Origin: Mikrocytos mackini
Lineage: Eukaryota > Endomyxa > Ascetosporea > Mikrocytida > Mikrocytiidae
Direction: 5' to 3'
Assembly (NCBI GenBank): GCA_030180075.1
Contig: JASNJN010000089.1
Coordinates: 1-45,293 of the forward strand
DNA length: 45,293 nucleotides
Each line of letters begins with the position of its first letter. Position 1 is the first letter of the stretch. Under the pieces are notes generated by a model that was given only the letters and a program-made list of their open reading frames with translations, was not told the DNA's origin and searched no databases. This document shows positions 20,170-41,589 of this stretch, one piece after another. Made by a program: the position numbers and the translations under genes.

Positions 20170-20549
20170 AATAGTACATAGATTATTTATTAACTAAAAT
20201 AATTCTTTGCTATTTATACTTTAATTGATTTTACAATTAAAATATATAATTTTAACTTTTGTAATTTTTGATGTTTCGTTTTAACTGTGAATGTTTTGGT
20301 GTTGATTATGAAAAGAGAGTGATATTTTGTAACACATCGAACAAACTAGTTATAAATAAATAGGTAGGCAATTTATGCCATATCTGGTTTGTGTGCGAAT
20401 GTATACAAAGAATGATGAGCAGGGGCGAGTAGACTCGCTTCAAAATCTTATTAGGCATCACCATTTGGTTTGAATATGTGATATGTCATTTATCATATCA
20501 TATTACGTAACCATAATCGATATCAAAGATATTTGTCATGTAAAATAGT
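20170..20549. other. intergenic spacer
   Basis: AT-rich with no gene seen. It holds a perfect 14-bp palindrome GCGAGTAGACTCGC (about 20427-20440). Confidence 0.45.
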
Positions 20550-23500
20550 TTGAATACACAAATTATAAAATTTTTTGATTTTAAAAAATTAAGTATGCAA
20601 CAACTTTCTCTGGACACCTTTCCTTTAGACAAGGCAACAACCAAGATCATAACATACCCCAATGGATTCAAGGTCCTTCTAATTTCTGATCCTAACGTTA
20701 AACAAGCTAAGGGGACCATGTTAATTTCTGTAGGAAGCACAAAAGACCCAAACGAGTATCTTGGTCTCGCCCATTTTCTTGAACACATGGTTTTCATCAA
20801 GAGCGAGAAGTATCCCGAGGTAGACCACTTCATGTCTTATGTAGGCAGGAATGACGGATATACAAACGCTTACACAGCTTCAGACCGCACTTGTTTTTAC
20901 TTCTCCATCGCTGCACAGAACTACGAGCACGCCCTCGACATTTTCGCTGAGTTCTTTCACAACCCATTTGTGTTCGACGAGTCATTTGTAAATAGAGAAG
21001 TGAACGCAGTGCACTCAGAGTACGTAAACTCAAAGTCTGAAGATTATTGGCTTACACAGTACTTGTTACAAAACCATATTCGCCCTGAAATTGATCATGG
21101 CAAGTTTAATATGGGCTGCTTAGAATCACTAGGCAACAACCCACAAATTATGTCCGCTTTGAAAGACTTCCATTCAAAGTATTACACGCCCAACAATATG
21201 ACACTTGTTCTTTGCACCAATCAAAACATAGAAGCAATAGAAACGATGGCAAATGGAAAATTCTCTTCCGTAATAAACAACACTATTGCATCACAAGAAA
21301 AAGAAAAGGGATTAAATAATACAAATTTGTTCACGATCAATAAAGAAGAAAAGACATTTTTCCCCAATGAAAGCTTTGATTTGGAAATTACTAAACACAG
21401 CTCGCTTTCAAAGAAGGACAAATTAGAAGTCTTCTTTTCTACCGATTCTATTTTACCTTACTACAAATCCAACCCTATTTTTGTTATACATAGGTTTATA
21501 AATTCCAAAATAAGAAACACGCTTTATGACGCTCTAAAACAACTTGAGTACATTACAGACTTACATTTTGACACGTATGAGAAATGTGTGGACATTTCTG
21601 TGTTACATCTTTCTGTTGACTTAACGAAAAAGGGATTGGAAAACAAAGACCAAGTTATTTATTTGATTTTTACATGGATAAACATTCTTAATAGTGCATC
21701 AAATGAAAGTTCAACTGAGTATTACAACGAAACAATGCACAAGTATGATTTAAGTTGGTGTTACAAAGAGCCTGCAAACAATGCAGAACAAATGATTAAA
21801 TACGCAAATGTCCTCCACGACATATTTAAAGTAGATGAAAACAACAAAGAACTTACTTTGGAAAGCTTGTTAAGAATAAAGGAAGTTAACCTAGAAGTGT
21901 TAAGATTGTTTACTAAACAAATGGTTGATATGAACAGAGTTAAAATATTTGTTGGAAGTGAAGAGTACAAAAATGAACTAAATCTCAAAGCAGGAAAATA
22001 TTACGATAAATATTACTGTAAAGAAACAATAAAAATAAATGATAAATGTTCAAAAGAAGTAGAATTACTTTTCCCAAAAGAAAACATTTATATCAAAAAA
22101 GAAGAAATCGAAGAAAAGATAGAAAGTTACAACAAATTCAATGAAAACGATAACCAAAATACGTTTGTGAATTTGGCACAAATGCCTTTGGTAGAAGACA
22201 ATTTATACTTCACAAATGATTCCAATTTTAACATAGAAAAGAATTACATTTTTATCAATTGGATTTCTTCATTTCATAATTCAAACGTTGAGAACTATTT
22301 GTTTACAAAAATACTAATAGAATTAATAGAAAACAAATTAATACCAATTTTAGAGCATCCTTCTGAGTGTCTCTACAAATCTCAGTTATACAACACGCAA
22401 AGAGGACTTTGTTTAACAATAAGCGGTTTAAATTCTGGGTTTAGAGATATAATTTTGTTAATTTTGAACGAAATCAAATCGTTTGATTTTAACACTGTGA
22501 AAGACACACAAATTGAAACTGAACGTCAAAAGTTAATAAGTAGTTTAGTTGCAAACGATGAAAAACAGCCATTTAAGATGAACAGAGAAATTATAAACGC
22601 TTTGTTAAACAAACATGATTACTACTACACAGAAAAGTTGTTAGTACTGAAGAAACCAGACTTTGTTGAGATGTTTAAACGTAGGATTGGAGAGTTAAAA
22701 CATAGCGTGTTTGAAAGAAGCTTTGTAAGTGTTTATACACATGGAAACATTGCACAAAGTGAGCAGTTTAACTTACAAAAAGACGTTATTGAAATGTTTG
22801 GAGGGAACACAAATTTGCAAAAGGAACCATTCCCAACTTTGATGCTTCTGGATGATCATTCTAATAATATTAGTAATGAAACAGAAAATTCAAACAAACA
22901 TGCAAAGGTTATAAATAATAAGGGATTATGTGTACGTCTGGCTTCAAGCAATGAAAAGGCGGAAAACAACCTTGTTTGTATAACCAAACAAATACATTCT
23001 TCTGAACTTTCGCACATTCAATTAAAAGTCATAAGTTGTCTTCTAGATAATCTTCTTTCGGACGAGTTCTTTGCTAAGCTTAGAACAGAGAAGCAACTAG
23101 GTTATGCTGTTTTCATTCGAAACTGGCACATCAACAATGTCAACAATTTAGTGTTTGTGGTTCAAAGTCCAAACACATCTGTAAATGACGTACGTAAAGA
23201 AATAGAGAACTTTATCGAAAGTACTGCAAATGAGATTATAGAAGGATTGAAAGAGGAAGTTTTGGAAAGTACAAAACAAGCGCTAATTAGCACTTGGAAT
23301 GAGCCAATTATGAAGATGAAAGATGCAGCGATTAAAAATTGGAATGAAATTTACAGTGACCGATTTGATTTTCAACATGAAACAAAACTAATTGAGTGTT
23401 GCAAAGCCGTTACAAAAGAAAACATAAAAGAATGGTACTTTGATTTTATAAAGGATGATGGAAAATTGAACAAAACTGTTGTTATTGAAGTTGATAAAGA

Positions 23501-23585
23501 GTTAAAAGATGATAAAGAAAATTTAGAAAATAGATTTGGGGAGTTGTTTAAGACAAAAATAATTATTGAAGGCATGAATAAGTAA
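20550..23585 (+). CDS. insulin-degrading-enzyme-type M16 metalloprotease
   Basis: M16A peptidases are zinc enzymes that enclose and cut short peptides. The inverted zinc motif HxxEH is at residues 75-79 (HFLEH), with the third ligand at E157 in REVNAVHSE, the expected spacing. The C-terminal half has FFAKLRTEKQLGY and FVVQSPNTSVNDVRKEIE, matching the substrate-contacting Arg...Tyr of insulysin. About 1,011 aa, the full four-domain length. A second Met at residue 16 (20595) is a good alternative start, because an A/T-rich AAATTT-like stretch (20560-20590) lies just before it. No signal peptide is evident, so it is probably cytosolic. Microsporidia commonly carry such proteases, some of them secreted. 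Confidence 0.95.
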   Translation: MNTQIIKFFDFKKLSMQQLSLDTFPLDKATTKIITYPNGFKVLLISDPNVKQAKGTMLISVGSTKDPNEYLGLAHFLEHMVFIKSEKYPEVDHFMSYVGRNDGYTNAYTASDRTCFYFSIAAQNYEHALDIFAEFFHNPFVFDESFVNREVNAVHSEYVNSKSEDYWLTQYLLQNHIRPEIDHGKFNMGCLESLGNNPQIMSALKDFHSKYYTPNNMTLVLCTNQNIEAIETMANGKFSSVINNTIASQEKEKGLNNTNLFTINKEEKTFFPNESFDLEITKHSSLSKKDKLEVFFSTDSILPYYKSNPIFVIHRFINSKIRNTLYDALKQLEYITDLHFDTYEKCVDISVLHLSVDLTKKGLENKDQVIYLIFTWINILNSASNESSTEYYNETMHKYDLSWCYKEPANNAEQMIKYANVLHDIFKVDENNKELTLESLLRIKEVNLEVLRLFTKQMVDMNRVKIFVGSEEYKNELNLKAGKYYDKYYCKETIKINDKCSKEVELLFPKENIYIKKEEIEEKIESYNKFNENDNQNTFVNLAQMPLVEDNLYFTNDSNFNIEKNYIFINWISSFHNSNVENYLFTKILIELIENKLIPILEHPSECLYKSQLYNTQRGLCLTISGLNSGFRDIILLILNEIKSFDFNTVKDTQIETERQKLISSLVANDEKQPFKMNREIINALLNKHDYYYTEKLLVLKKPDFVEMFKRRIGELKHSVFERSFVSVYTHGNIAQSEQFNLQKDVIEMFGGNTNLQKEPFPTLMLLDDHSNNISNETENSNKHAKVINNKGLCVRLASSNEKAENNLVCITKQIHSSELSHIQLKVISCLLDNLLSDEFFAKLRTEKQLGYAVFIRNWHINNVNNLVFVVQSPNTSVNDVRKEIENFIESTANEIIEGLKEEVLESTKQALISTWNEPIMKMKDAAIKNWNEIYSDRFDFQHETKLIECCKAVTKENIKEWYFDFIKDDGKLNKTVVIEVDKELKDDKENLENRFGELFKTKIIIEGMNK

Positions 23586-25603: not shown

Positions 25604-25983
25604 GCAGAGTTGAGAATTTCCGACCCGACCGCCCGAACCCGACCCGTTCGGGTCGGGTTCGGGCGGAAGAAGGTCAAAAAAACGCTAAAAACTCTCACAT
25701 GGATGCACTTTTAAAAATATGCACAATATTAGTTATTTACGCTAGATATTTGCGTAATTTTATTTTTCAAATAGTTAATTTACTCTGATATTAGATTATA
25801 TGATGAAAACAGGCTAAAACAAATAATTTTTGAGTTTTGTTTCGTTATTTTTGAATATCATAAATTTGGGGGAATTAATTTTTTAGTAGAAAAATTCTTA
25901 CAAATTTCCTACCCGACCCGCCCGACCCGAAGGCGGGGCGGGTCGGGTCGGGTTCTGGATTTAGGCAAAATTCTCAACTCTGC
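25604..25983. mobile_element. MITE with GC-rich palindromic ends, copy 2 (380 bp)
   Basis: Perfect 15-bp inverted ends (GCAGAGTTGAGAATT at 25604-25618 and its complement at 25969-25983), bounded by the direct repeat ATTAAA (25598-25603 and 25984-25989). GC-rich palindromes of CCCGA words sit just inside each end (about 25621-25667 and 25911-25954). They match those of the copy at 2227-2602 closely, while the AT-rich interiors share little. It lies between the 163-aa gene and the disrupted membrane-protein gene. Confidence 0.8.
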
Positions 25984-26104: not shown

Positions 26105-27062
26105 TCATATTTCAAATAAATCCAAAAAATATTTCAAGAAGTCTTGGAATTCACTTTCTAATTTATTCAGAATAGCTTCAACAAGGATTATGTTACCTTC
26201 TACGTATTCTTTATATAAACCTTCATCGAAATCTTCATAATTTTCTGATATAATATCCAACAGTTTATAAATTAACCCAACAATGTATCCAAAGTGTTCG
26301 TATTCTTTATCTTCTTTATAAAATGGTTCAAAAAATTCATCATCTTTACCTCCCTTGTGGTAATAATTTTGTTTTACGTATGTATCTCTGAGTATTAAGT
26401 ACAACAACATATACGAAAGTCCGTTTGATATATTTGGGAAATTAGAAATTAATGTAAGATCGATTTTGTTGTCCATGTTTTCTTCCCATTTTGCTCTTAT
26501 AACGTCGTGTTGAAGAATGTTGTTAAAACCACTATTTCCAAACGCCCATAAAATCTTTGACAGTATAAATACTCTGCCAAGTGCAATTCTTTCGGTTATG
26601 TTTGGAAACAACAAGAACACAATGCTGAACAGGTTGATGTTTAGTGTCTCCTTGGTTGAAATTGCTCTTGTGGTTTCGTCTGACACAGTAACTTCACTTA
26701 CAGATGTTTCATGAGATAGAGGCCATGCCAAATCTGGGATTTCTATTGATTTTGCTTTTAGATTGTAATGAATAAACCTAAAAATGGCTCTCATGTATCG
26801 GTTGGCATTAATATAACGCTCAAATGTATCGCTTTGTTTGTCTGATAAAGTTAAACTTGTTGGAAGATGGATTTTGATTTTTTCTAAATTGACAAAATAA
26901 ATTTTGAGAAACTCGAAAGTTTGCTCACTAATTATTTTCGAGATCATTGTTGGGTTTAATATTTCTCGATCGACTGAATTATCTTCTTCGTATTCTTTTC
27001 TGAATTGTAATATAGAAGATTCATCGAGGCCTAATTTCTCTAGTTTATTCTGTGTTTGTTCT
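26105..27062 (-). pseudogene. 3' part of a membrane-protein gene split by a retrotransposon
   Basis: Minus-strand frame open from 27062 to 26105. It starts upstream of the first Met at 26947 with residues EQTQNKLEKLGLDESS, so the Met is internal. The body is helical, with a hydrophobic patch at about residues 105-140 of the Met form and an acidic tail. No family is recognised. The 5' exon-like piece with the start codon is at 31693-31891. The two pieces share the 5-bp duplication GTTCT. Counting it once, they give 1,152 bases, exactly 384 codons in one frame. The Met at 26947 could still allow a 280-aa truncated product. Confidence 0.85.
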
Positions 27063-27579
27063 TAACGTGCCCATAATGAAGGGCTACGTATTAATAATTA
27101 AATATCCACGGTGTTAATAATAAAAAGTAAAACTTTAGAAATTACTTATGGCAGAGTATATTTGCACATTAAATAAAATTTATTATATATGTTTATTTTT
27201 ACTTTAAGCGATGTATTTTGTTTCTCATCAAGTTTTAACAATGATTTGGGGGCTTAATTTTGTATTTATTGTCTTGATTAAAAATTTTCCTTTATAATCG
27301 GCGAATTTTCGGAATTTCTTCATTTAAAATTTGAAAATCGAAAAATGGTAACAAATAAATGTAATTTTTTTGGTAAAACAATTAAATCAAAAACCGAGCC
27401 CCAGATCTATGTTAAAATTTGATGAGAAACAACATAACTAATTGCGGCGATATTTACACTCGAAAATTTTTCAAAATTTCTTGTGCAAATATACTTTTCC
27501 ATTACTTATATGTCAGGAAATAACTACTACGCCAACTATAGAGGCAGGGGAGGTCGCTCTGATACCTTTGGGCAACACA
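27063..27579 (+). repeat. left LTR (157 bp, interrupted by a nested MITE)
   Basis: LTR sequence at 27063-27149 and 27510-27579; the 360 bases between are the MITE plus one copy of its 9-bp duplication. It starts TAACGTGCCCA and ends TGGGCAACACA, an imperfect inverted pair. The Gag start codon (27510) is inside the LTR. Confidence 0.9.
27150..27500. mobile_element. foldback MITE nested in the left LTR (351 bp)
   Basis: Ends GGCAGAGTATATTTGCAC and the complement of GGAAAAGTATATTTGCAC (27150-27167, 27483-27500), 16 of 18 matching. The duplicated target ATTACTTAT (9 bp) is at 27141-27149 and 27501-27509, and occurs once in the right LTR, proving insertion. Much of the interior also pairs with itself, for example TTTGTTTCTCATCAA near 27218 with TTGATGAGAAAC near 27418. 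A 9-bp duplication fits the MULE superfamily. Confidence 0.9.
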
Positions 27580-28400
27580 AACTGAATTCAGTAATGTCAA
27601 ACTACAGGCAAACACCTGTAGCCCAAGATTCACAGCGAACAACGAATTCGTATAATAACAGCACAAAATCTGATTTATTACGCGGACAAATGACTTTCAA
27701 CTTCGACACCCGCATTGGGAACGCGAAAGGACCTACACTCACAATTAACAAACTGTGTATAAAGTCTAAATATGATGTTGATGCAATACCTTCATGGATC
27801 AAACGATTTGAGCAATTAAACGAGTTAAATGAATGGTCTGAATCAGAAGCTCTAAACATGCTAAGAGTCGTAACAGACGAGGGGATTCACAAGAAATTTG
27901 AAGGCGCACATGGTGCTGGCGATGCGTTAAATCGCATAAAAAAGTCATACTTCACGCTAGCGCAATACTCGTACTACAAACAGAAGATGAACGAGATTAG
28001 AATGGGCGAATTTAGTAACTTTGCAGAATTTGCCTTCCGTCTTACAGAAATCGCGGACAAGACCAATATTTGCATTTCAGAAGCAAAGAATTATATTACG
28101 GAGCGCGAATTGATTGATGTTTTTGTTTCAAAAATCCCTGTACGTTTGAGAAGAAAAGCGTTGGATTTGCATGGTGAAGAACTAATAGACCTTGCAACGA
28201 AACTGGGTAATTATAATGCAGATGACAAACTGTATTTTAGCGACATATATCAAGACGAACTGCGAAGGCCGAACTTTAAATCTTCCCACGGACAGTCTAA
28301 TCATAGAGGATTTAACCACCAAAGACAAGCTAGATTTAATGGGACTGGCTATAGAGGTACTCGCAACCCAAATGAGTACAATGGTCATAATGGAGGATAA
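27510..28400 (+). CDS. Gag of the Ty3/gypsy element
   Basis: Gag forms the particle that packages retrotransposon RNA. The start at 27510 (MSGNNYYANYRGRGG) is inside the LTR; the longer frame from 27483 only adds MITE-derived codons. Capsid-like signs are WIKRFEQLNELNEWSE and GEFSNFAEFAFRLTEIADKT. The RG-, N- and H-rich tail replaces the usual CCHC zinc knuckle as the likely RNA-binding part. It ends at TAA 28398-28400. The same frame runs on into protease, so Gag-Pol was one frame and this stop is either a readthrough signal or a nonsense mutation. Confidence 0.85.
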   Translation: MSGNNYYANYRGRGGRSDTFGQHKLNSVMSNYRQTPVAQDSQRTTNSYNNSTKSDLLRGQMTFNFDTRIGNAKGPTLTINKLCIKSKYDVDAIPSWIKRFEQLNELNEWSESEALNMLRVVTDEGIHKKFEGAHGAGDALNRIKKSYFTLAQYSYYKQKMNEIRMGEFSNFAEFAFRLTEIADKTNICISEAKNYITERELIDVFVSKIPVRLRRKALDLHGEELIDLATKLGNYNADDKLYFSDIYQDELRRPNFKSSHGQSNHRGFNHQRQARFNGTGYRGTRNPNEYNGHNGG

Positions 28401-29543
28401 AGAAGCCAATATAGGAATAACAACTACAATAATTCAAATAGAAAGGAAAATGAATTTGGACAACGTCGCGAGTTCAATGGCAGTCGGAATCAGGGCCATG
28501 GAAATCAGGGAAACAGCCAACATGGTCGACACGACGCATACAATAAAGGGTTATTTATAAAGACACACACCGAGGAACAGTTTAACTTAGAATACGCCGG
28601 CGAAATCAACAAAAAACAAATATCAGTTACTATGGACACAGGTGCTTATGCTAGTTACATAAATTCCAGATTAGCAAATGAAACAGAAATTGAGGTTACA
28701 ACAAGCCCTCACAAGTTTCTAGTGGCTAATGGAAATGAGGTATGTATTAATAAGAAATCTCAGATAGAATTTAAACTTGATATTTGTCCTCACACGTTAT
28801 ACAAAGAGATGGTGTTCATAGTAGACAATTTACCGTGTGACGTAATCTTAGGGCGTTCTTGGTTGAAAAGAAATGAAGTAAGAATAGATTTCAGAAAGAA
28901 GCTCTTTGAAGTCAATGAAAACAGTGATATGGCTTTATGTGAAACAAAAACCTTGAATGCTGAAACACCTGAAGAACAACTTGAGTCTAAGGTAATGATG
29001 ATAAGCAGCAAAGAAAGGTTCTCTAAAAATATAAACCATTTCGAACAGTTGAAAGAGTTAAAGGCTATTCCAGGAGTCAAGCATAGTATAGAATTAACGG
29101 AAGAAAAGGATATAACGTCCAAACCATATTCGATTCCCTTGAAGATCTATCCACAACTTAAGCAAGAAATAACCAGATTGTTGAAAACAGGAATAATACG
29201 ACACTCTAACTCAACCATATGTGCACCGGCTTTTGCGATTAGAAAGAAAGATGATTTAGTGAGGATTGTATGTGATTATCGTAAACTAAATGCCGTAACC
29301 AGGAAGAGTTCCTACCCATTCCCGTCTGTTGATATGCTCCTATTACAACTTAAAGAAAGCGAATGGTTTAGCAAGTTGGACTTGCATACAGGGTATTATC
29401 AAGTGGAGATTGAGGAAAACGATAAACCAAAATCCAGTTTTGTCCTTCCAATTGGGCAATTTGAATGGAATAGAATGCCCTATGGTTTAGCTACAGCCCA
29501 AGAACATTCCAAAAGACAATGGAAAGGGTTTTGGCAAACATAG
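28401..29543 (+). pseudogene. Pol part 1: protease and first half of reverse transcriptase
   Basis: Same frame as gag after the TAA. The aspartic protease active site is TMDTGAY (Met at 28632) with the partner VILGRSWL. RT starts with the usual proline/hydrophobic linker, then VRIVCDYRKLNAVTRKSSYP, FSKLDLHTGYYQVEI and PIGQFEWNRMPYGL. The frame is lost just after GLATA (about 29490-29500), within a run of Cs, where one base is missing relative to the frame that continues at 29519. The frame ends at 29543. Confidence 0.88.
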
Positions 29544-30466
29544 ATGGTATAAAAATATTCTTAGATGATATAATTTTGTTTTCAAAAGATAAAGAGAGCC
29601 ACTATGAATTATTGAATGAAGTATTAGAGAGACTCAAAGCAGCTGACGTGTCGCTGAACATTGGAAAGTGTGAATTCTTTATGAAAAGCATAAAATATTT
29701 GGGATTTGTGATTGAAAAGGATACTATGTCGGCAGATTTAGATGCATTTGATAGAAAGAAGTTAACATCCAAACCAACCACACGGAGACAGCTAAGAAAA
29801 ATGATAGGTTACATAAACTGGTATCGTCCGTTTGTACCTTACCTATCAGAAAAGATAGCAAGTCTGAATGAGAAATTAAAATGTGATAAGGTATGTTGGA
29901 AGAATGAAGATCAACACTTAATAGAAGAAATAGTAGGGATAATTGAAGAAAATATTAAACTCCACTTACCTGATTATCAAAAACCATTTGTGTTATACAC
30001 AGATGCATCCGATAATGGGATATCCGGAATTTTGACGCAGAACAACACAATAATTCGGATATTTTCGGCAAAATTAAAAGATAGTGAAATGAAATATAAC
30101 ATCATGGAAAAGGAATTACTTGCAGTACTTCGAAGCCTACAAAAATTCCGATCCATAATCTTTGATAATAAAGTTACAGTTATGACTGATAACAATAACT
30201 TAACATTCGAAAAAGCAATTGACTCCTCAAGATCACAAAAATGGAAGTTAGTGCTAAGCGAATACAACTATGAATTTAAGCATATTCCCGGAAATATAAA
30301 CACAGGGGCCGATTACTTATCTCGTTTATACAATAGCGATAAAATAATGGAAAATAAATTACCTTTTGCCAAGGAAGACTCGCAGCCCAATAACAACTTA
30401 AACCTTATAATGGAACTAAAAGAAAACGATAAGGAAACAAAAAACAAAATGAAAGGAATTAGCTAG
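29519..30466 (+). pseudogene. Pol part 2: second half of reverse transcriptase and RNase H
   Basis: It begins in the RT palm; the catalytic box is FLDDIILFS, the Ty3 form of YxDD. The connection domain (IGYINWYRPFVPYLSEK) is followed by RNase H with its acidic residues in LYTDASDNGISGIL, MEKELLAVLRSLQKF and VMTDNNNLTF, and the closing HIPGNINTGADYLSR. It ends at TAG 30464-30466, which is in frame with the integrase that follows. Confidence 0.9.
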
Positions 30467-31549
30467 GAATTTGGAGTGGATATAAAGAGAGTTGATAAAG
30501 GAAGATTTGTCGTAGAGGATGAAGACAGTCATAAATTCTTAGAAACTATTCATATTAAACTATGTCACCCAGGTTCAAAGTCTATGTATAATACTTTAGT
30601 AAAGTATTATAAAATGAAAGGATTGAAGACACGTCTTGAAGAACTGGTTAAAGCATGTGATGAATGTCAAAAGCAGAAGTCGAGCAAGAATAAATATGGC
30701 AAAACTACGGGATATATTGAAAGTAATGAGCCTTGGGAAAGAATCAGTTCCGATATTTGGGGACCATTTGACACGGAAAATTTCGGAATCCCAGGAACAG
30801 GTTATATCATTACATTTACAGATTTGTTTAGCCGATATTCCCAATTTAGATATATAGACAATATAGAAGCAGAAACCATTGTCAAGACAATGAAAGAAGC
30901 CTGGCTGGATCGATATAAAACTCCAAAAAGTTTCTTAAGCGATCGAGGAACCCAGTACACCAGTAAGGTGCTACGAAGAACAATAAAAGATAGGAAGATT
31001 GAGCAACATTACACGACCGCATACAATCCGACCGGCAACTCCTTGTCCGAGCGACTTAATATATTTATCGGGACTGGAATGCGCATTTTACAGAACAAAG
31101 AATTGGATATATATTCGGCCGTGAAGAGAGTGCAGGATGCATACAATGCCAACTACAACAGTACTATTAAAAATTCTCCAGCCTGTCTGCAATTTGGAAT
31201 TGATCCTATGGATCCATTTAAAAGAAAGAGAAACATAGACATAAAAGAAACAAAGGAGATAATTAGGAAAGCGGCAGAGGCCAATGAAAAGAAACGAAAT
31301 CTAAATAGGATTACAATCGAGGATTACAAAATAGGAGATTATGTCCTCTTGAAGAATAGAATTGAAGGGAAATTATTACAGAAATGGTTGGGACCATACC
31401 AAGTAAAGGATACAAAAAGTAATAATAACGTACTCTTAATAGAAATGGAAAATAAGCAAGTATGGACTAATATCAAACGACTGAAGCCATATTTCATACT
31501 AAGAGTAAAGAATCAGATAGAGAAGAGAGGCAGGATAACGTGCCCATAA
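30467..31549 (+). pseudogene. Pol part 3: integrase
   Basis: Integrase inserts the cDNA copy into the genome. The HHCC zinc domain is visible (HIKLCH, then CDECQKQK). The catalytic triad is D in SSDIWGPF, D in FLSDRGTQYTS and E in NPTGNSLSERLN. The C-terminal domain has GDYVLLKN and LQKWLGPYQV, with no chromodomain. It is in frame with part 2 but separated by the TAG. It terminates at TAA 31547-31549, 14 bases into the right LTR. Confidence 0.9.
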
Positions 31550-31692
31550 TGAAGGGCTACGTATTAATAATTAAATATCCACGGTGTTAATAATAAAAAG
31601 TAAAACTTTAGAAATTACTTATATGTCAGGAAATAACTACTACGCCAACTATAGAGGCAGGGGAGGTCGCTCTGATACCTTTGGGCAACACA
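31536..31692 (+). repeat. right LTR (157 bp)
   Basis: Identical to the left LTR once the nested MITE is removed. It carries the Gag start codon (31623) again, which here reads out into the host gene in antisense. Confidence 0.92.
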
Positions 31693-31891
31693 GTTCTGTT
31701 GTGGAACTTGTGGACGATAGTGTCTTGTTTGAGGTTGAAGAAGTTGTCGAACTGGATTTTGAACCAGACTTTGTAGAAAAGTAGAAAATGGAGATCACCA
31801 AACTTATGGATATTAAAAAGAAAATTAAAAATGCCAGTATCATTGTATTAAATTTGACTTTCTCTCTCGAAATTGTATGTTTTTTCGACAT
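31693..31891 (-). pseudogene. 5' part of the split membrane-protein gene
   Basis: Starts at 31891. A 16-residue polar N-terminus (MSKKHTISREKVKFN) is followed by a hydrophobic segment at residues 17-38 and a Ser/Thr-rich linker, then the retrotransposon junction after codon 66. The start is preceded on the minus strand by CAAATTTTAAATTTTAAA, an AAATTT-type promoter element. The layout resembles the 687-aa protein at 6484-8547 and the 65-aa protein at 33316-33513. The rest of the gene is at 26105-27062. Confidence 0.85.
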
Positions 31892-31894
31892 TTT

Positions 31895-32389
31895 AAAATT
31901 TAAAATTTGAAAAGTTCGGCTTTATTGTGATGACCAGTGTTAAAAAAGAGGTATCATTAATTTCATTTTAAGAAAATTTCAAAAACCTGATGTGGTTTAT
32001 TATCTTGGAGGAAATGATATTACACGTATTTGAAACAACAGTATTGTGTTGATTATTGCTATTTATTATACGTATTTGTTAATATACTCGTCTAAAAACG
32101 TTTATTTTTACATCTTGAATAAAAGTGATATCATTTTAAATTTTAAAATTTATTTTATTGTAATAATTTTTTTATATACATAATTTATTTATAACATTTT
32201 ATTAATAATTTGCACTTATTTTTTGTTGTTCCAATACTGGTTATTGTTTTGTTTGTTCATTTCTATATCTTTTATGTTTTGACGCTAGAAATTAAAATTA
32301 TAAATATTAAATTGGGGATTATAAGATACATGTTAAAGTCATAGAGTTTATAAACCAAATTGATATAGAATTATTACTAGGTCATTTAA
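31895..32389. other. intergenic spacer
   Basis: Very AT-rich. Apart from the AAATTT-type promoter of the split gene at 31892-31910, nothing is recognised. Confidence 0.4.
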
Positions 32390-33240
32390 TTAAATTATGT
32401 TCGCGTTAGTTAAATATTCATAATTCATTTTAACCATTAATCTTTCTCTAAGTTTGTCGACACCTAGCCTGTTTCGTTTCCAATGGACTAAAGTTTTGCA
32501 TATTGAAAAAACTCTTTCTAATGTTCCGTTGGAAATTCCCAAACTATCACAATAACTTTTTAATTGAAATAATCTTTTAAACTTCGTTCTATAACATCAC
32601 CAAAATCATCATTACTAATCTTATTAGTGATAGCAGCTTCATACTCAAATATTTCAGTTCGTATACTATTGATATCAGGAGTTGCAGTTGTAGTATTAGT
32701 TCTAAATGGTTCGTTATGTGCTTCAGAATTGTTCATGCAATTTTCAAACTCCGTAACTTCCGATCCTGGTTCGTATTCTTCATTTCCGACATCATTAAAT
32801 TCCGTTTCCAGGTTTAATTGCAACTCAGCATTATCAGGTTGTATTGAAGAACTGCCAGGAAAGAGCTTTGTGCTTATAATTTCTCTTATTTAACTTTTTG
32901 AATTTGTGTGAGATTAGCATAGAGATCCTTGTTAACATAGCGGACTAACAAGGTTAAATCTTTATGTTGTGTTAACAGGAATGAAAACGATGATTCTAAA
33001 TGTAGAAGTAATCCGGATATAAAGGCTTTAGTTTTAGGTTCGGCTGACCTAAGATCGCGCAACTGTATAATCTTTTCCTGATAATCATCAAACCAAGAAA
33101 TGAAATGGAAAATTGTTGAATTTCTTTTTTGTAAAACAAGTGGAATCATGTTTATCTTCTCAAGTACAAGTATCATTTGTTTTAGAAATTTCGAGTCTCG
33201 CAATAATTCTAAAAGTCATCGTCTAGTAGGGTTAAACTTC
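32390..33240 (-). pseudogene. second hAT-family transposase remnant
   Basis: Reading right to left: NPTRR-stop-LLELLRDSKF (about 33195-33235), where hAT proteins have an Arg-Trp, so a TGA has probably replaced Trp. The fragment 32886-33203 follows, then the acidic fragment 32560-32823, then after another frameshift the dimerisation domain TLERVFSICKTLVHWKRNRL (about 32463-32522), continuing GVDKLRERLMVKMN. It ends at 32390. The sequence differs from the hAT at 1-1552 (a different C-terminal block), so two hAT families are represented. The 5' half is missing. Confidence 0.75.
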
Positions 33241-33315
33241 TTGGTGGCGCATTAAGAATTTCATTCTTTACAGTTTAAAAAAGAGTATAGAGATGAAGAA
33301 ACCAAAACCCAAACT

Positions 33316-33513
33316 ATGAGTAAAGCAAGTAAGTCTAATACTGTGGGAGTTTTTGTTTTGTTAGTGATATTGGTTGTATTGGGTGTTATTTTAATTGGAC
33401 TGCTTTTAGGTATGATTATAGTTAAATGTAGAAAGGGGAAAAGAAATAGAAAACTTTCGGTTAAGTATGAACGTAGAAGGACGGGGAATACCAGTGGGAG
33501 TATAAACGTTTAA
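33316..33513 (+). CDS. 65-aa single-pass membrane protein
   Basis: A short polar N-terminus (MSKASKSNT), one long hydrophobic helix at residues 10-36, and a strongly basic tail (KCRKGKRNRK). By the positive-inside rule the tail should be cytosolic. CCCAAACT directly precedes the start, resembling the microsporidian CCC-type signal. No family is recognised. It could be a truncated relative of the TM-anchored proteins at 6484 and 31891, or a genuine small membrane protein. Confidence 0.55.
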   Translation: MSKASKSNTVGVFVLLVILVVLGVILIGLLLGMIIVKCRKGKRNRKLSVKYERRRTGNTSGSINV

Positions 33514-33872
33514 GTAAAAGGTATATTATGTGTTGGGAATTTTTAAAACATTTTATTAACATATTTAATAGTAATAGTTAGTTTTTATTAAAAGTTTAGT
33601 TACATTGTAAATATGAAATTATATCTTTTTAAAGTGTTACAAGGGCAATATTTGAAAAATATTAAATGAAAAACGGGTCGCGATAGAGATCATGTTAAAA
33701 AAATTTCGCCATCTTAAGGAATTGTATTGAATTATGTTATAAAGTTTTAATATCACTACGACTTTTATGGTTAATTATAAATTTCATTTATACATTAAAT
33801 TAGAGTTATATAAGTAACAAATAATCACATGTATTTTTATTTTCATTTATTTATTTATTCGTTCGAGTTAGA
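33514..33872. other. intergenic spacer
   Basis: AT-rich. No gene, repeat or RNA structure recognised. Confidence 0.4.
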
Positions 33873-36092
33873 CTATAATTTTGCTTTATTTTCATTCTGT
33901 TGTTCTTCATCACATCCGCTCACATTAACATTCCAGTTTTTATCACTTATTTCGTACTGAGTAACGATTGGTTCATCAGTTCCATTGGGTATGATTTCCA
34001 TTCTATATTTTTCCGACCCATCATAATTCAATTCTACGACCATCAACTGTCCAATATTGTTAACATTTTTACGAGCTTCTGACGTTAAATATTTGTCATC
34101 TTTTTTATCCGATGAAATTGGTATTATATTCTCAAGTTCTAGCTTTGTCAGGAAGCTTATTCTTATGAGTACTGTTTCTCGATGATTGGAATCCATTATA
34201 TCTTGTTTATACTTACAATACGTTTGTTCCCATCCATGAAACTTAGTATTTGAGCTAAGTAAGTATTCTCCTGCTTTGTATTCAATTATGTAATTCTTAT
34301 TATATTTCCTATAATAATCATCCAACTGTTCATATTTATTCTTGAAAAATGGACTATATTTAGGTAAACCGCCATCTCCGTCCATAATAATGAGGAACAT
34401 CTTTCTAAAACGATATTTGTCAATATTGTCAGCGACTTCGTAAAGAAAGGTTCCGAATGTTTGGTATGCAACGACACAAAATTCCTTCCATTTCTCATTT
34501 CTAAAAGTTTCACAGCATTTTTCTGCTTGTCCATTGAATTTGCTTTCAGATAAGAAACCCATATAATTATGTGCTCCCCAATTATACTTTCCTCTAATTT
34601 CCCTGTTAGTCAAACCCAATGTATAGGTAACCCCATCTTCCTGAGTAGTTTCCCACCGTTTTATAGTGAGTAGCCCTGTCTGATACAATTGAGTGATAAC
34701 TTTGTCGTCTTTTCCTTCGCACTTGCGTCGAATTGCATTCAGTACTCCCGGCTTAACTTTTGTGCATTCGCCAGTAAGTTCAAACTTCTTGAAAAAATCA
34801 AAATTATCCCGTAAGAAATCCCATCTAAAATCGTTACCTGAAGTTTGGCTCCAATAATCACCACAACTTCCTCTCTTAAATGACAAGTTTACTGATATAG
34901 GGTTGAAAATTCGAGTTTGGGTGGTTGCAAAAGTATATCCGTCATATTGACAGATTAACATACCCATTATAATGTCTTTAATAGATTCCATTTCACTTGG
35001 TGTGTATGAGTCTTTAACAGAAACCTTTTCATCATCATTATTATGTGTATCTTTTTTGTTATAATTGTGCCGAAGACTTTCTTTATAAAAATCTATGAAT
35101 AAATCATCGCTAAATAAAGTCCTTATTTCTTTTTCAGTGTATCCTACTAATGTTGCATAAGATGCATCTGTTGAAATATTATTAGCGCCTAGTAATGGTG
35201 AATACATATCATCAATTTCCAACATTGTTACTCCGGTTGTGAATTGTAAGTGTATAAGATCGCTGTTATTTTTTAATGTTTGATAGAAACCATTTATAAA
35301 TTTAGTGAAAGGAGAAATATATCCTTCATCTTGTCTTTTGTGTTCTGCTCTAAGATTGTCTATAGCACAACCACTTTGATATATAGCGTCGTACTCATCT
35401 ATTAGTACGACCATTTTTGGTTCATAATCGTTTCCAAGTTTAACCAGTGCATGCATTATTAAGTTCATAAAGTTTATATACACTTCAATTTTCCTGTTAA
35501 GTATTGTTTCATTATTGGTTGGTATGGTTTCTGTTTGTAAATATGTTTTGTTGTTTATGTATTCAATGGCTTCTTTTATCGTTATATTGTTCGATTCTAG
35601 ATTGTGTTTTTCAACTATTTCCAGAAGTTTTCGAAGATAACTCGAAAGTGTATTATACATTAACTCTTCATAATGCGTAAGGAAACAAAAGCACATAACC
35701 GGGTATTTAGGCCAGCTATACTTTTCAGGTGTGTTGGTAAGTTCACCTTTGTTTGTGATGAAGTTTCCAGCATTATCTTTAAGGTGATGTTTGTAAATTT
35801 GTGTGTTGGAGAAGTGTTCTTTGTATTCTGGCCCGTTGGCTATTTTCTCGAGTGCATTGATTAACAGTGTTTTCCCGAACCTGCGCGGTCTAATGAAGAA
35901 AAATGACCCAGGTGTAACCATAAGTCGGGCATATAGGGCTGTCTTGTCTAAAAGTTCATTATCTTCTAATAATCGAATAATTTCCGTCGTGGCTACACCG
36001 GGTATATACTCTAGCTGCGTTGTATTTATATCGCTGTTTATTTCATTTGTAGTACCCTGGGGCAAGACGGGGGAAGTTTTGATATTTTTCAT
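33873..36092 (-). CDS. AAA-ATPase-like plus PD-(D/E)XK nuclease protein (739 aa)
   Basis: The N-terminal half is the AAA-ATPase-like domain of Pfam PF09820: FFIRPRRFGKTLLINALEKI (P-loop, K74), then VVLIDEYDAIYQSG (Walker B, D232/E233) and FTTGVTMLEIDDMYSPL. The C-terminal part carries a PD-(D/E)XK-type core, IIEYKAG (E604, K606), with acidic residues upstream in IIMDGDGG and the WEQTYCKYKQ helix after it, as in the PDDEXK_9 family that usually accompanies PF09820. The protein is intact, with an AAAAAATTTTAG stretch just before the start. This architecture is common in bacteria and patchy in eukaryotes, including fungi. The natural substrate is unknown; an NTP-driven DNA nuclease is the inference. 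It sits between transposon remnants. Confidence 0.88.
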   Translation of the reverse strand: MKNIKTSPVLPQGTTNEINSDINTTQLEYIPGVATTEIIRLLEDNELLDKTALYARLMVTPGSFFFIRPRRFGKTLLINALEKIANGPEYKEHFSNTQIYKHHLKDNAGNFITNKGELTNTPEKYSWPKYPVMCFCFLTHYEELMYNTLSSYLRKLLEIVEKHNLESNNITIKEAIEYINNKTYLQTETIPTNNETILNRKIEVYINFMNLIMHALVKLGNDYEPKMVVLIDEYDAIYQSGCAIDNLRAEHKRQDEGYISPFTKFINGFYQTLKNNSDLIHLQFTTGVTMLEIDDMYSPLLGANNISTDASYATLVGYTEKEIRTLFSDDLFIDFYKESLRHNYNKKDTHNNDDEKVSVKDSYTPSEMESIKDIIMGMLICQYDGYTFATTQTRIFNPISVNLSFKRGSCGDYWSQTSGNDFRWDFLRDNFDFFKKFELTGECTKVKPGVLNAIRRKCEGKDDKVITQLYQTGLLTIKRWETTQEDGVTYTLGLTNREIRGKYNWGAHNYMGFLSESKFNGQAEKCCETFRNEKWKEFCVVAYQTFGTFLYEVADNIDKYRFRKMFLIIMDGDGGLPKYSPFFKNKYEQLDDYYRKYNKNYIIEYKAGEYLLSSNTKFHGWEQTYCKYKQDIMDSNHRETVLIRISFLTKLELENIIPISSDKKDDKYLTSEARKNVNNIGQLMVVELNYDGSEKYRMEIIPNGTDEPIVTQYEISDKNWNVNVSGCDEEQQNENKAKL

Positions 36093-36105
36093 AAACTAAA
36101 ATTTT

Positions 36106-37962: not shown

Positions 37963-38489
37963 GACGAAAAAAATTGGGCTGGAAAAATTGGGCTGCATTT
38001 TTCTAGCCCAAATGATTTTTGGGCTGCATTTTTCCAGCCCAAATAATTTCGAAGGGTTTGTAAATATGAAATTATATTGGCTATTTTATCGAATTTGAAT
38101 GTAAAAAAAATAAAAAAATCACAGTTAGACACTTGTAATAGCTGAATTTAACTTTAGTTTATTAAAAAATAATTCGGGCAACAACAAATACTCAATTAAC
38201 TCCTAAAATCTACTTTAAATTGACGGATAATCTAACGATAAGACACAAATAGGACACAAACCAAGTTGTGTATAAACAGAAAACCCTACTCTATTAAATT
38301 TGGTATATCATTGATATTTCTTTTCTACAAATGTTGGTAAACTTACCATAATTTCCAATAAAAAGTCGATATTTATATTTTTAATTTTTTGGAATTTTGG
38401 GCTGCATTTTCCAGCCCAAATATTCTATCTCCAACCCAACCCATGGGCTGCCCCAAAAAAAATGCAGCCCAATTTTCCATTCTCGTCTA
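37963..38489. mobile_element. MITE-like element with GGGCTG hairpins
   Basis: AGACGAAAAAAATTGGGCTG at the left (about 37963) is mirrored by CAGCCCAATTTTCCATTCTCGTCT at the right (38466-38489). Inside, TTGGGCTGCATTTTT...AGCCCAAAT hairpins occur twice at the left (37990-38046) and once at the right (38396-38421), plus a GC-rich stretch at 38430-38455. No frame and no target duplication recognised. The MULE coding sequence starts directly at its right edge. Confidence 0.55.
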
Positions 38490-40329
38490 GCATACTACAA
38501 AGAGATTAACAGAAACAAGAAGAAGTATTTAGTTGAATATTACGAAATCCACTCACACAATATTGTTTTGGACAAGATCAGACTTGGTAAGGATATAAAA
38601 CATGATTTGATTTCTAAATTAAAAAGCGGGAAGGAGATAGACAAAGTTTGGCGAGAAATATTAAAACAAGTTGATTTGGACAATGTTAAAAAACTAGATT
38701 TGGTTGGGCCTTCTTACTTACGTTATTTAAGGAATACATATGTCGATGTGCGACTAAGTGAAAACGATCTTGAAAGTTTACAGAAATGGAGAAATATAAT
38801 CAAAAAGAACGGCCTATTGGAAGATCAACTCATTATTCACAACGAAGACAAAGAAGGAAAAGACTTTTCGTTTATATATATGATGCAGACAAAAGAACAG
38901 AGGAATATAGTTGCGAATTTAAAGTTTGACACTATTATGATTGACTCAAGTTTTGGAACGAATCTCTACAACTACACATTAGTTCCTTTCTTTATTTTGG
39001 ACGAGAAACAGGCAGGGTTCCCTATAGCATTTGCTATATTTTCAAATGAGAACACAGAAAACTTAATAACAGTAATACAATGGTTGGTTGAAAAGAACCC
39101 TGAATTTAGAGGAATAAAATATTTGATGTCAAACTTAGCACCAGTGTATATGAAGGCTTGGTCAATAGCTAACGGACCGGGTGTTACATGGCTTTATTGT
39201 ACATGGCATTTCTACAAGGCAGTCATTGGAAAGATAACTTTACATTATAAGGACACAGAACAACGGGATACAATACAGTCAATGTTTATATTGATGTGTA
39301 ACGCAGTAGAGTAACAAGAATTTTACAAAACTAAATTGGAATTTTTGCAGTTTGCAAACAGCACTTCAAGGGAATTTTATAATTACTTTCAATCTTACCA
39401 TAATCACAAAGATACGAGATGGGCTCTTATACAAAGGCTAGAAACAGAAGTAAACGTTAACATGTTTGTGGAATCATTTTTTAGGATATTAAAGAAGGAC
39501 TGGCTTAACAATGTTAGAAAGAATAGGATCGATTTTCTTGTAAGGACTTTACAGGAATACACGCTGTGTCTTTCAGTGACTAATTTTATTGGGAATTTCA
39601 TTACAAAAGGCGACTTTCTAGGTTTTAGACAAAATAGCAAAGGGAAAACACAAAAGAGATTAGGTCTACAAGTTAAAGATTTTAATAAAGTTGCGGACAA
39701 TTGTTAGGAATATAAAATGTACAGAATTACTAAAAAGAGCCTTAACAAATGCGCTGATTGTTCCAACATTTGCGTACAATACAAAATTTGCTATCATTCG
39801 TTAGCGTGTACTTGTCTCTCACTTAAAAAAGAAGAATGTATGTAAACACATACACAAGGTTGTGAACATTCTAAAGTGGTGCAAAGAGGGGATGGACGGG
39901 GACGCGCGAGAAAACGATTATATTAAAGGATTTACAGAGGGAAACGAAGACAATATATTCACAGATCAAATTATAGAGAATGTTCCAGTTGAATGCGAAT
40001 TAACAGAAGATATAAGTACAGGAATAAACCAAGGGGAATGTGTAAAGGGTGAGGCATTTAGAGTAGATCGTGAAACGAAAGAGGACATAGTAGGGAGCTT
40101 GAGTAAAATACGACGGTTGGTACAGGATAATAAGATTTCAAAAGTTAAAGCAACACAGATGAAGCATATCTTGGGAGAATTAACATTAGCTGACAATTCA
40201 GAACATGACGATACTGCAAACAAATCAAAAATTAAACCGGTTACAGCATCAAAAACAACATATAAAACCCAAAGACAACAATTGAAGATTAACAAGCCGC
40301 GAGGAAGAAAGAAAAAAAACAAGCGTTAG
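38490..40329 (+). pseudogene. Mutator-like (MULE) transposase, inactivated
   Basis: One frame from 38490 to 39704, broken by TAA (39312-39314), gives a MULE transposase. First catalytic Asp: FDTIMIDSSFGTN. Second: MSNLAPVYMKAW, where Asn (codon 39132-39134) stands where Asp is expected. The C2H motif LYCTWHFYKAV follows, and the Glu is in NMFVESFFRILKK. After a second stop (39705) the frame continues with Cys/His-rich residues (CYHSLACTC) and, after a frameshift near 39838, CKHIHKVV, together like a SWIM zinc finger. The tail (39862-40329) is acidic and ends KPRGRKKKNKR, like an AT-hook. Four lesions, so a dead copy. The N-terminus is cut by the element at 37963-38489. Confidence 0.85.
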
Positions 40330-41589
40330 TTTTAATTATTTATAATAATGCCATTGTTTTCTTAAATACTTTATTTCGTTTTTCATTATAGTTTTGTTTA
40401 ATTTTTTATTTATAATAAGATTTGATTTATATAAACAAATTAAATAAAATGAATACCGTTGATATGAATTAAACCAATAATAACTATCAAATAAATTAAA
40501 TCATAGATCATTATTCTTATAATTATAATTAATTACGGGGTTGGTCGTTTTCTGTTCTTATTAACTCCTTATTTAAGCCTTTTAATATTTTCTTCGTTGT
40601 AAGGCGAGTTACAAGAAACACTATAGGTATTATCTGTCTATGCGTTTATTATTCATTTTACACATCTTGTTAGTTAAAATACCGTTTGCTAGAACTTCGT
40701 TTTGTGATGTACTTTGTAAACTTCAAAATATCTTTTCTGGGGTTCGTTGCAAAGTGGCACGTAATGACAATAGGAATATCATTCATTTGCAACCTTTCCA
40801 CCCCTCGTTTCTACTTATAATGCTCTACTCGCGCCGTTCAAAAAGTTTTCTGTAGAATCTTCATTTGTGTATAAAGTTTGATATAAAGTTGTTAGTTGTA
40901 GAAATAGATTGCTATCTATAGAATGCTTCAATGTTGTGTTTTATAACTCTCTCCTAAAGGAATAATTTTGTAGGGCCTAAAATAAATTTAACTTTGGGAA
41001 ATATTTGAAATAGGGATTTTTGTTCAACAGACTTAGCCATTTGATTATATTATGTGTAAATATATGTTTCGCGGATAGTCGAATTTTAGTGATGCGCCGT
41101 TTAACATATAGTAAGAAAATAACGTTTTTTAAAAAAATATCCAAAATTTAACTTTTATCATGTAATTTCACGGATTTCTGTATGTATGATATGGCACGAC
41201 AAAATTCGAACGGATTCATGAATAACTTTCGATAAAAACGTTTATTTATCGCCTGCCGCGGGCTGAAGCCCATGTTTAAATACATTTTTTTTCGCTATAA
41301 AATTCGACGTGTTTAATTAGTTAACCGCATACCTATGCTTCGCACCTACTAATCGTGATTATCCCTAGTTTTGTTAATAATAAAGTTCATAAGCATCAAG
41401 AATTTTGATGAAATAAAATTTGTGCGTAGTCCACCCTAAGGGGGATATAAATCAAATAGTTAATATATTAAAAAAAATGTTTTTAAAAAATAAAAAAACA
41501 ACAAAAAATAAAATTTCAAGGATACTATTAACATTTTTACTTATTTATAAGAAATTTCTTTTAATCTCTTTAATTCCTCTACCCGCTCA
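40330..41589. other. non-coding stretch between MULE and Helitron
   Basis: No credible gene. It includes a short GC-rich hairpin GGGCTGAAGCCC (about 41260-41271) and the palindrome-like CCACCCTAAGGGGG (41432-41445), either of which could belong to the Helitron's 3' end, but no CTRR terminus was identified. Confidence 0.4.

What the first reader, a model, noticed from the sequence alone, without database searches (positions are those of the whole stretch)
26105..31891. Membrane-protein gene cut in two by a retrotransposon, with the event fully readable
Seen: the flanks share GTTCT (27058-27062, 31693-31697). Removing the element and one GTTCT leaves 1,152 bases (384 codons) in a single minus-strand frame with its own AAATTT-type promoter, a TM segment and a Ser/Thr linker. 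The flanking pieces have no other lesion, so the loss is recent. The gene may still be intact in sister strains, making this a candidate presence/absence polymorphism in a surface or secreted protein.
Basis: seen in the sequence. Interest (0 to 1): 0.75.

Follow-up and report, generated by a model that had tools for sequence, protein, structure and literature searches.

The report
Membrane-protein gene split by a retrotransposon
In what appears to be the oyster parasite Mikrocytos mackini, a gene that looks like one of a large family of membrane-anchored proteins has been cut in two by a mobile element that later picked up a second one; the event is ordinary, but the protein family behind it looks interesting.

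Summary
A 4,630-bp Ty3-type LTR retrotransposon (27063-31692) sits between two GTTCT copies that read the same GAA codon in one minus-strand frame. The halves are a 66-codon anchor (membrane segment, Ser/Thr linker) and a 318-codon body without other stops. The genome is Mikrocytos mackini (Rhizaria, oyster parasite), not a microsporidian; the AAATTT promoter is unsupported.

Added here: (1) a 351-bp MITE sits in the 5' LTR with its own 9-bp target duplication, so it came later. (2) Contig C126 repeats the right half with the last 28 bp of the LTR, so the break predates that duplication; there the anchor runs in frame into a hAT-like ORF. (3) The element is defective (two stops, one frameshift), yet its LTRs are identical. 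(4) The genome holds many ORFs of about 365-460 codons; seven of the eight relatives read start with a membrane anchor, and one is in the species' transcriptome. The split gene fits by layout and size; homology of its body is unproven.

No intact copy was found in the 13.6 Mb held (only part of the genome) or among the proteins searched. The proposed strain polymorphism is untested.

The parts
31694..31891 (-). N-terminal piece of the interrupted gene: ATG at 31891, short K/R tail, one TM segment, Ser/Thr linker (66 codons); a second in-frame ATG lies 48 bases further in
   Evidence: 100% identical at protein level in contig C126
26105..27061 (-). C-terminal piece of the interrupted gene (318 codons, stop at 26105-26107); orphan sequence, single copy in the genome held
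27058..27062 (.). left copy of the 5-bp target-site duplication GTTCT
31693..31697 (.). right copy of the target-site duplication GTTCT
27063..31692 (+). Ty3/gypsy-type LTR retrotransposon, defective, antisense to the gene
   Evidence: domains; LTRs; no other near-identical copy seen in G000 (only best candidates are scored)
27063..27579 (+). 5' LTR, split by the nested MITE; LTR bases are 27063-27149 and 27510-27579, and 27501-27509 is the second copy of the MITE's target duplication
31536..31692 (+). 3' LTR, 157 bp, identical to the 5' LTR minus the MITE
27150..27500 (+). 351-bp MITE with ~20-bp terminal inverted repeats (GGCAGAGTATATTTGCACA / GGAAAAGTATATTTGCACA), inserted in the 5' LTR directly before the gag ATG
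27141..27149 (.). 9-bp target duplication ATTACTTAT of the MITE, left copy
27501..27509 (.). 9-bp target duplication ATTACTTAT of the MITE, right copy
27510..28400 (+). gag-like ORF, ATG inside the LTR, ends at TAA 28398-28400
   Evidence: relatives
28401..29543 (+). protease + first part of reverse transcriptase, same frame as gag after the TAA
29474..30466 (+). rest of reverse transcriptase (shifted frame) + RNase H, ends at TAG 30464-30466
30467..31549 (+). integrase (H2C2 + rve), frame ends 14 bp inside the 3' LTR
31665..33275 (+). segment (last 28 bp of LTR + right flank + hAT-like 3' part) repeated on contig C126 at 98.7%

Best explanation
One LTR-retrotransposon insertion, antisense to the gene, split a 383-residue single-pass membrane-protein gene of Mikrocytos mackini between its Ser/Thr linker and its soluble body. 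Later a MITE jumped into the element's 5' LTR. Separately, the right half of the broken gene plus the last 28 bp of the LTR was copied to another place (C126). Shown from sequence: the target duplication and phase match, the two open halves, the nested MITE with its own 9-bp duplication, and the shared LTR scrap. Inferred: that the gene was functional before, that it is now inactive, and that it belonged to an undescribed, fast-diverging family of anchor-linker-body proteins, possibly at the cell surface.
For: TSD and phase; long open C piece with coding-like codon use; identical 157-bp LTRs; PR-RT-RNaseH-IN order; the LTR/right-flank junction is seen in a second contig. The MITE is in one LTR only, with a perfect 9-bp TSD. 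Of 14 other copies examined, 13 had both ends resolved; 8 of 13 had a perfect 9-bp TSD and 2 more had 8 of 9. Several share flanks, so not all are independent, and one resolved copy (L008) spans 604 bp. Species: M16 peptidase 100% identical to GAHX01001183.1, and GAHX01 is the M. mackini transcriptome. Family layout: eight relatives were read (C125, C138, C322, C269, C539, C470, C321, C476). Seven have an N-terminal TM segment: five by hydropathy, windows within residues 13-47, and C539 and C321 by eye. C476 as fetched shows none.
Against: The C piece has no homologue in 5.8 billion proteins at E<=1 and no other match in the genome held at E<=10, so the gene is known only from its frame, layout and phase. 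The N piece alone does not score as coding. Homology of the C piece to the family body is not established: pairwise against C125, 7 of 2,000 shuffles reach the score; in the profile test 252 of 1,918 do. Left junction and left flank are seen in one contig only.
Confidence: 0.85

Rival explanations
1. The two pieces were never one gene: the element landed beside or inside unrelated sequence, the C piece is a separate gene starting at its Met 39, and the in-phase open frame on the right is chance.
For: First Met of the C piece is residue 39; the N piece does not score as coding; the bodies are not provably homologous.
Against: Phase match across the TSD; frame open up to the element on both sides; anchor, linker and body add up to 383 residues, in the size range of the family.
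Confidence: 0.1
2. The window junctions are partly assembly artefacts: short-read assembly joined LTR copies and flanks wrongly, and C126 is another such join.
For: The published M. mackini assemblies disagree strongly in size (49.7 vs 15.4 Mb), which the authors ascribe to handling of repeats; divergence between window and C126 is uneven, 1 substitution in 693 columns against 15 in 893, Fisher p 0.0017.
Against: A wrong join would rarely give a matching 5-bp duplication in phase; the right junction is present in two contigs with differing sequence.
Confidence: 0.07
3. The insertion is not damaging: the C piece or an LTR-driven chimera is still expressed and useful.
For: The C piece stays stop-free; the 3' LTR's gag ATG (31623) opens a frame that runs into the right flank on the plus strand.
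Against: No protein from the C piece in the collection, although it holds M. mackini transcript proteins (seen for two queries); the element is antisense to the gene.
Confidence: 0.08

Closest known systems
Ty3/gypsy LTR retrotransposons (Metaviridae)
   Same: 5-bp target duplication, two LTRs, protease-RT-RNaseH-integrase order, purine-rich tract before the 3' LTR
   Different: Very short LTR (157 bp) beginning TA, not the usual TG (it ends CA); gag ATG inside the 5' LTR and pol frame ending inside the 3' LTR; no obvious tRNA-type primer site after the LTR (read by eye only). Of 7 fetched relatives, LTR pairs were found in 4: the gag frame opens inside the LTR in 3 (C385, C634, C182), the pol frame ends within the LTR by 3-4 bp in 2 (C385, C634), and C553 shows neither (stop-to-stop frames, start codons not checked). 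A gag start inside the LTR is known from yeast Ty1 (recalled).
Mutator/MULE-type MITEs
   Same: 9-bp A/T-rich target duplications, inverted terminal repeats, no long ORF of its own, many copies (43 terminus matches on 27 contigs); 346 MULE genes are reported in this species (passage of PMC11069148)
   Different: No autonomous partner with the same termini was identified; in the window exact termini occur only at the MITE
Lineage-specific single-pass surface/secreted multigene families of parasites
   Same: N-terminal anchor, Ser/Thr linker, variable body, many diverged copies
   Different: No location or function shown. One paper search ('Mikrocytos' + 'surface protein') listed a single paper, on ribosomal protein trees; no wider search was made

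Membership tests
Ty3/gypsy LTR retrotransposon | two direct LTRs flanked by a short target duplication | tested here: met
Ty3/gypsy LTR retrotransposon | integrase downstream of RT-RNase H | tested here: met
   RVT_1, RT_RNaseH, then H2C2 and rve
Ty3/gypsy LTR retrotransposon | primer binding site matching a tRNA next to the 5' LTR | tested here: inconclusive
   sequence read by eye: no TGG start; no tRNA comparison made
MITE of a 9-bp-TSD superfamily (Mutator-like) | terminal inverted repeats, small size, non-coding, multi-copy | tested here: met
MITE of a 9-bp-TSD superfamily (Mutator-like) | 9-bp target duplications | tested here: met
   window site 9/9; 8 of 13 resolved copies 9/9, 2 more 8/9, 3 lower, 1 of 14 not resolved
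MITE of a 9-bp-TSD superfamily (Mutator-like) | autonomous MULE with the same termini | not tested
   not pursued beyond the pattern searches
M. mackini anchor-linker-body family (C125/C138/C322 type) | one N-terminal TM, Ser/Thr linker, ~300-residue soluble body, about 365-460 residues in all | tested here: met
   pieces read apart; linkers of C322 and C539 are poor in Ser/Thr
M. mackini anchor-linker-body family (C125/C138/C322 type) | sequence homology of the body | tested here: inconclusive

The most novel reading that the evidence does not exclude
Mobile elements may be reshuffling the anchor module of a large, undescribed membrane-protein family in this parasite. The same 66-residue anchor-linker that lost its body in the window is joined in frame, through a 28-bp LTR scrap, to a hAT-transposase-like body on C126 (391-codon ORF). 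The family keeps the anchor layout while the bodies diverge beyond recognition. TE-driven swapping of bodies behind a constant anchor would be a way to make new surface proteins.
Probability: 0.06. Interest if true: 0.7.

Novelty: new member of a known kind. Interest (0 to 1): 0.35.

Why it matters
As a gene disruption by a retrotransposon it is ordinary, and the species is already known to be full of transposons. It matters a little more because the layered insertions give an order of events in a little-studied parasite, and because following the broken gene exposed a sizeable, diverged, apparently lineage-specific family of membrane-anchored proteins that my one search did not find described. 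Such a family is a natural candidate for the host-parasite interface of Denman Island disease.

Tried and rejected
Microsporidian origin (my first reading, from the AAATTT wording and compact genes) was rejected once the M16 peptidase matched the M. mackini transcriptome at 100%. AAATTT as a promoter signal: not supported over all ORFs (5 of 29 within 30 bp, 3.1 expected with A+T matched). Among the 8 window genes I treated as host genes it lies within 30 bp in 4, two of which share one divergent intergenic stretch. It is not a family signal (2 of 7). Structure prediction of the C piece without relatives failed (mean pLDDT 38.5), so no fold search was run. PDB sequence search: one match at E 0.5. 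Profile comparison of the two family alignments with the C piece: probability 4.2% (E 0.0099) and 0.1%. Is the right flank part of a hAT transposon? The matches in C523, C69 and C206 start at window 32386 or later, so the anchor piece is outside that repeat.

Dropped or partial: one search used 8 of the 11 window ORFs it listed as the host set; the family alignments used 4 and 5 sequences out of 31 places found (queries and C126 included); the profile shuffles cover 1,918 of 2,000 because 82 returned no score; one search examined 7 fetched elements of more than 100 RT places.

Full report
What is there. Between 26105 and 31891 a minus-strand reading frame is interrupted by a plus-strand LTR retrotransposon at 27063-31692. 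The element is bounded by GTTCT on both sides. The 157-bp LTRs are identical once a 351-bp insert in the 5' LTR is set aside. Read on the minus strand, both GTTCT copies place GAA in phase: the right piece ends TTE, the left piece begins EQTQ. So the phase match can be seen without joining the pieces.

The organism. The M16 peptidase at 20544-23582 is 100% identical over 98% of the query to GAHX01001183.1. GAHX01 is listed as the Mikrocytos mackini transcriptome in PMC9998036 (passages seen); a very close sibling species cannot be excluded. M. mackini is a rhizarian parasite of Pacific oysters (PMC11069148, passages seen), known to be rich in transposons: 8,075 of 14,372 predicted genes and 4,228 LTR elements in PMC10245619 (abstract and passages seen). 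The genome held here is 13.6 Mb in 733 contigs, against 49.7 and 15.4 Mb in the two published assemblies. Absence statements are therefore limited.

The gene. The N piece (66 codons) has one membrane segment and 21 Ser/Thr in 28 residues; the C piece (318 codons) has no window above 1.5 on the hydropathy scale. The C piece scores as coding only in its own frame and is longer than any open run in 300 random sequences (maximum 145); the N piece does not score as coding in its frame. The C piece occurs once in the genome held, has no Pfam match at E<=0.1 and no relative at E<=1 in the protein collection. That collection does hold M. mackini transcript proteins (seen for two queries), so no intact version is visible there. 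This is weak evidence, because low expression would look the same.

A family. The N piece weakly matches other M. mackini ORFs: C321 at E 5e-4 and C322 at 0.04, in a low-complexity region. Following these led to ORFs with the same layout. C125 (435 residues), C138 (400), C322 (407) and C269 (365) each have one hydropathy peak within residues 17-35, 26-44, 29-47 and 13-31, then a linker with 15, 18, 10 and 18 Ser/Thr in its best 25 residues. C539 (380) and C321 show a TM by eye. C470 has the TM but is split by a stop. C476 (381) as fetched shows no TM. C322 as query finds 16 further places at 20-29% identity and E<=0.1, 11 of them in frames of 380-458 codons; C138 finds 4 further places; C321 finds 11 others at E<=1, 5 of them below 1e-3. 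C125 is in the transcriptome (P0121, GAHX01000175.1, full length; the two printed sequences differ at residue 42, W/R); the same search gave only two other hits, at E 2e-6 and 6e-4. The split gene fits this family by layout and size. Homology of its body is undecided. Smith-Waterman against C125 gives 69, near the C-terminus of both (7 of 2,000 shuffles as high; 12 other proteins scored 31-52), C476 is weaker (72 of 2,000), and a three-sequence profile does not separate it from shuffles (252 of 1,918). Against C321, 16 of 200 shuffles reach its score; against C138, C322, C269, C539 and C470 about half or more do.

The element. Protease, RT, RNase H and integrase come in the Ty3/gypsy order. 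The gag ATG (27510) lies in the LTR and the integrase frame ends 14 bp inside the 3' LTR. Of 7 related elements fetched, 4 showed an LTR pair; the gag frame opens inside the LTR in C385, C634 and C182 and not in C553, and the pol frame reaches 3-4 bp into the LTR in C385 and C634 only. Several relatives have gag and RT in one frame, for example 1,262 (C252), 1,296 (C182) and 1,363 codons (C553). The TAA at 28398, the frame change in RT near 29474-29543 and the TAG at 30464 therefore look like lesions. No near-identical copy was seen in the genome held, where only the best candidates are scored. The best-scoring other RT is 55% identical (62% over 158 residues in C385) among 121 other matches; the best gag is 44% (46% over 130 residues in C287) among 70, one of which is the 3' LTR itself. 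Apart from itself, the LTR matches three stretches of 53-55 bp at 91%. Identical LTRs beside a damaged coding region are slightly at odds. Either the copy was mobilised in trans when already damaged, or it decayed while 157 bp stayed unchanged by chance (0 of 157 allows up to about 1.9% divergence by the rule of three).

Order of events. The MITE is in one LTR only and has its own duplication, ATTACTTAT, so it came after the retrotransposon. Its closest copies elsewhere are 99% identical. The right flank (31693-33275) with the last 28 bp of the LTR recurs on C126. Differences: 1 of 28 in the LTR scrap, 1 substitution and 1 gap in 693 columns of flank, 15 substitutions and 3 gap columns in 893 columns of hAT-like sequence. 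The break is therefore older than this duplication, unless the C126 contig is an assembly join. In C126 the anchor piece continues in frame through the LTR scrap into a DUF659-like (hAT-type) body, 391 codons in all; the DUF659 match (E 1e-5) is below Pfam's cut-off, as is the hAT dimerisation match of the neighbouring ORF (E 0.025). With both parts open, a frame match has a one-in-three chance, so this is a lead and not a finding.

Verdict. The disruption is ordinary; the family it points to deserves a proper survey.

Noticed in passing
27150-27500: 351-bp MITE family with 9-bp A/T-rich target duplications (43 terminus matches on 27 contigs), with a 73% internal inverted repeat.
   Followed up: yes
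L062 523-1698 (contig C126): 391-codon ORF that fuses the 66-residue anchor-linker, 28 bp of LTR and a DUF659/hAT-like body.
   Followed up: partly
L063, L074-L080: Family of ORFs of about 365-460 codons, most of those read with one TM and a linker; C322 holds two in tandem and C321 an inverted pair; C125 is in the transcriptome.
   Followed up: partly
33270-35304: About 2 kb including part of the AAA-ATPase-like ORF 33873-36095 is repeated at 98.3% on contig C188; its edge interrupts the hAT-like sequence at about 33275, where C126 runs on.
   Followed up: no
25910-25955: Short GC-rich CCCGACCC / GGGTCGGG palindromic stretch in an AT-rich background downstream of the C piece.
   Followed up: no
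31623-31784: The gag ATG of the 3' LTR opens a 54-codon plus-strand frame (stop included), about 30 codons of it in the flank, opposite the Ser/Thr linker.
   Followed up: no
38385-39314: MULE transposase fragment in the window; no exact MITE terminus lies near it, the nearest being a chance-level match with 2 mismatches at 41053.
   Followed up: partly
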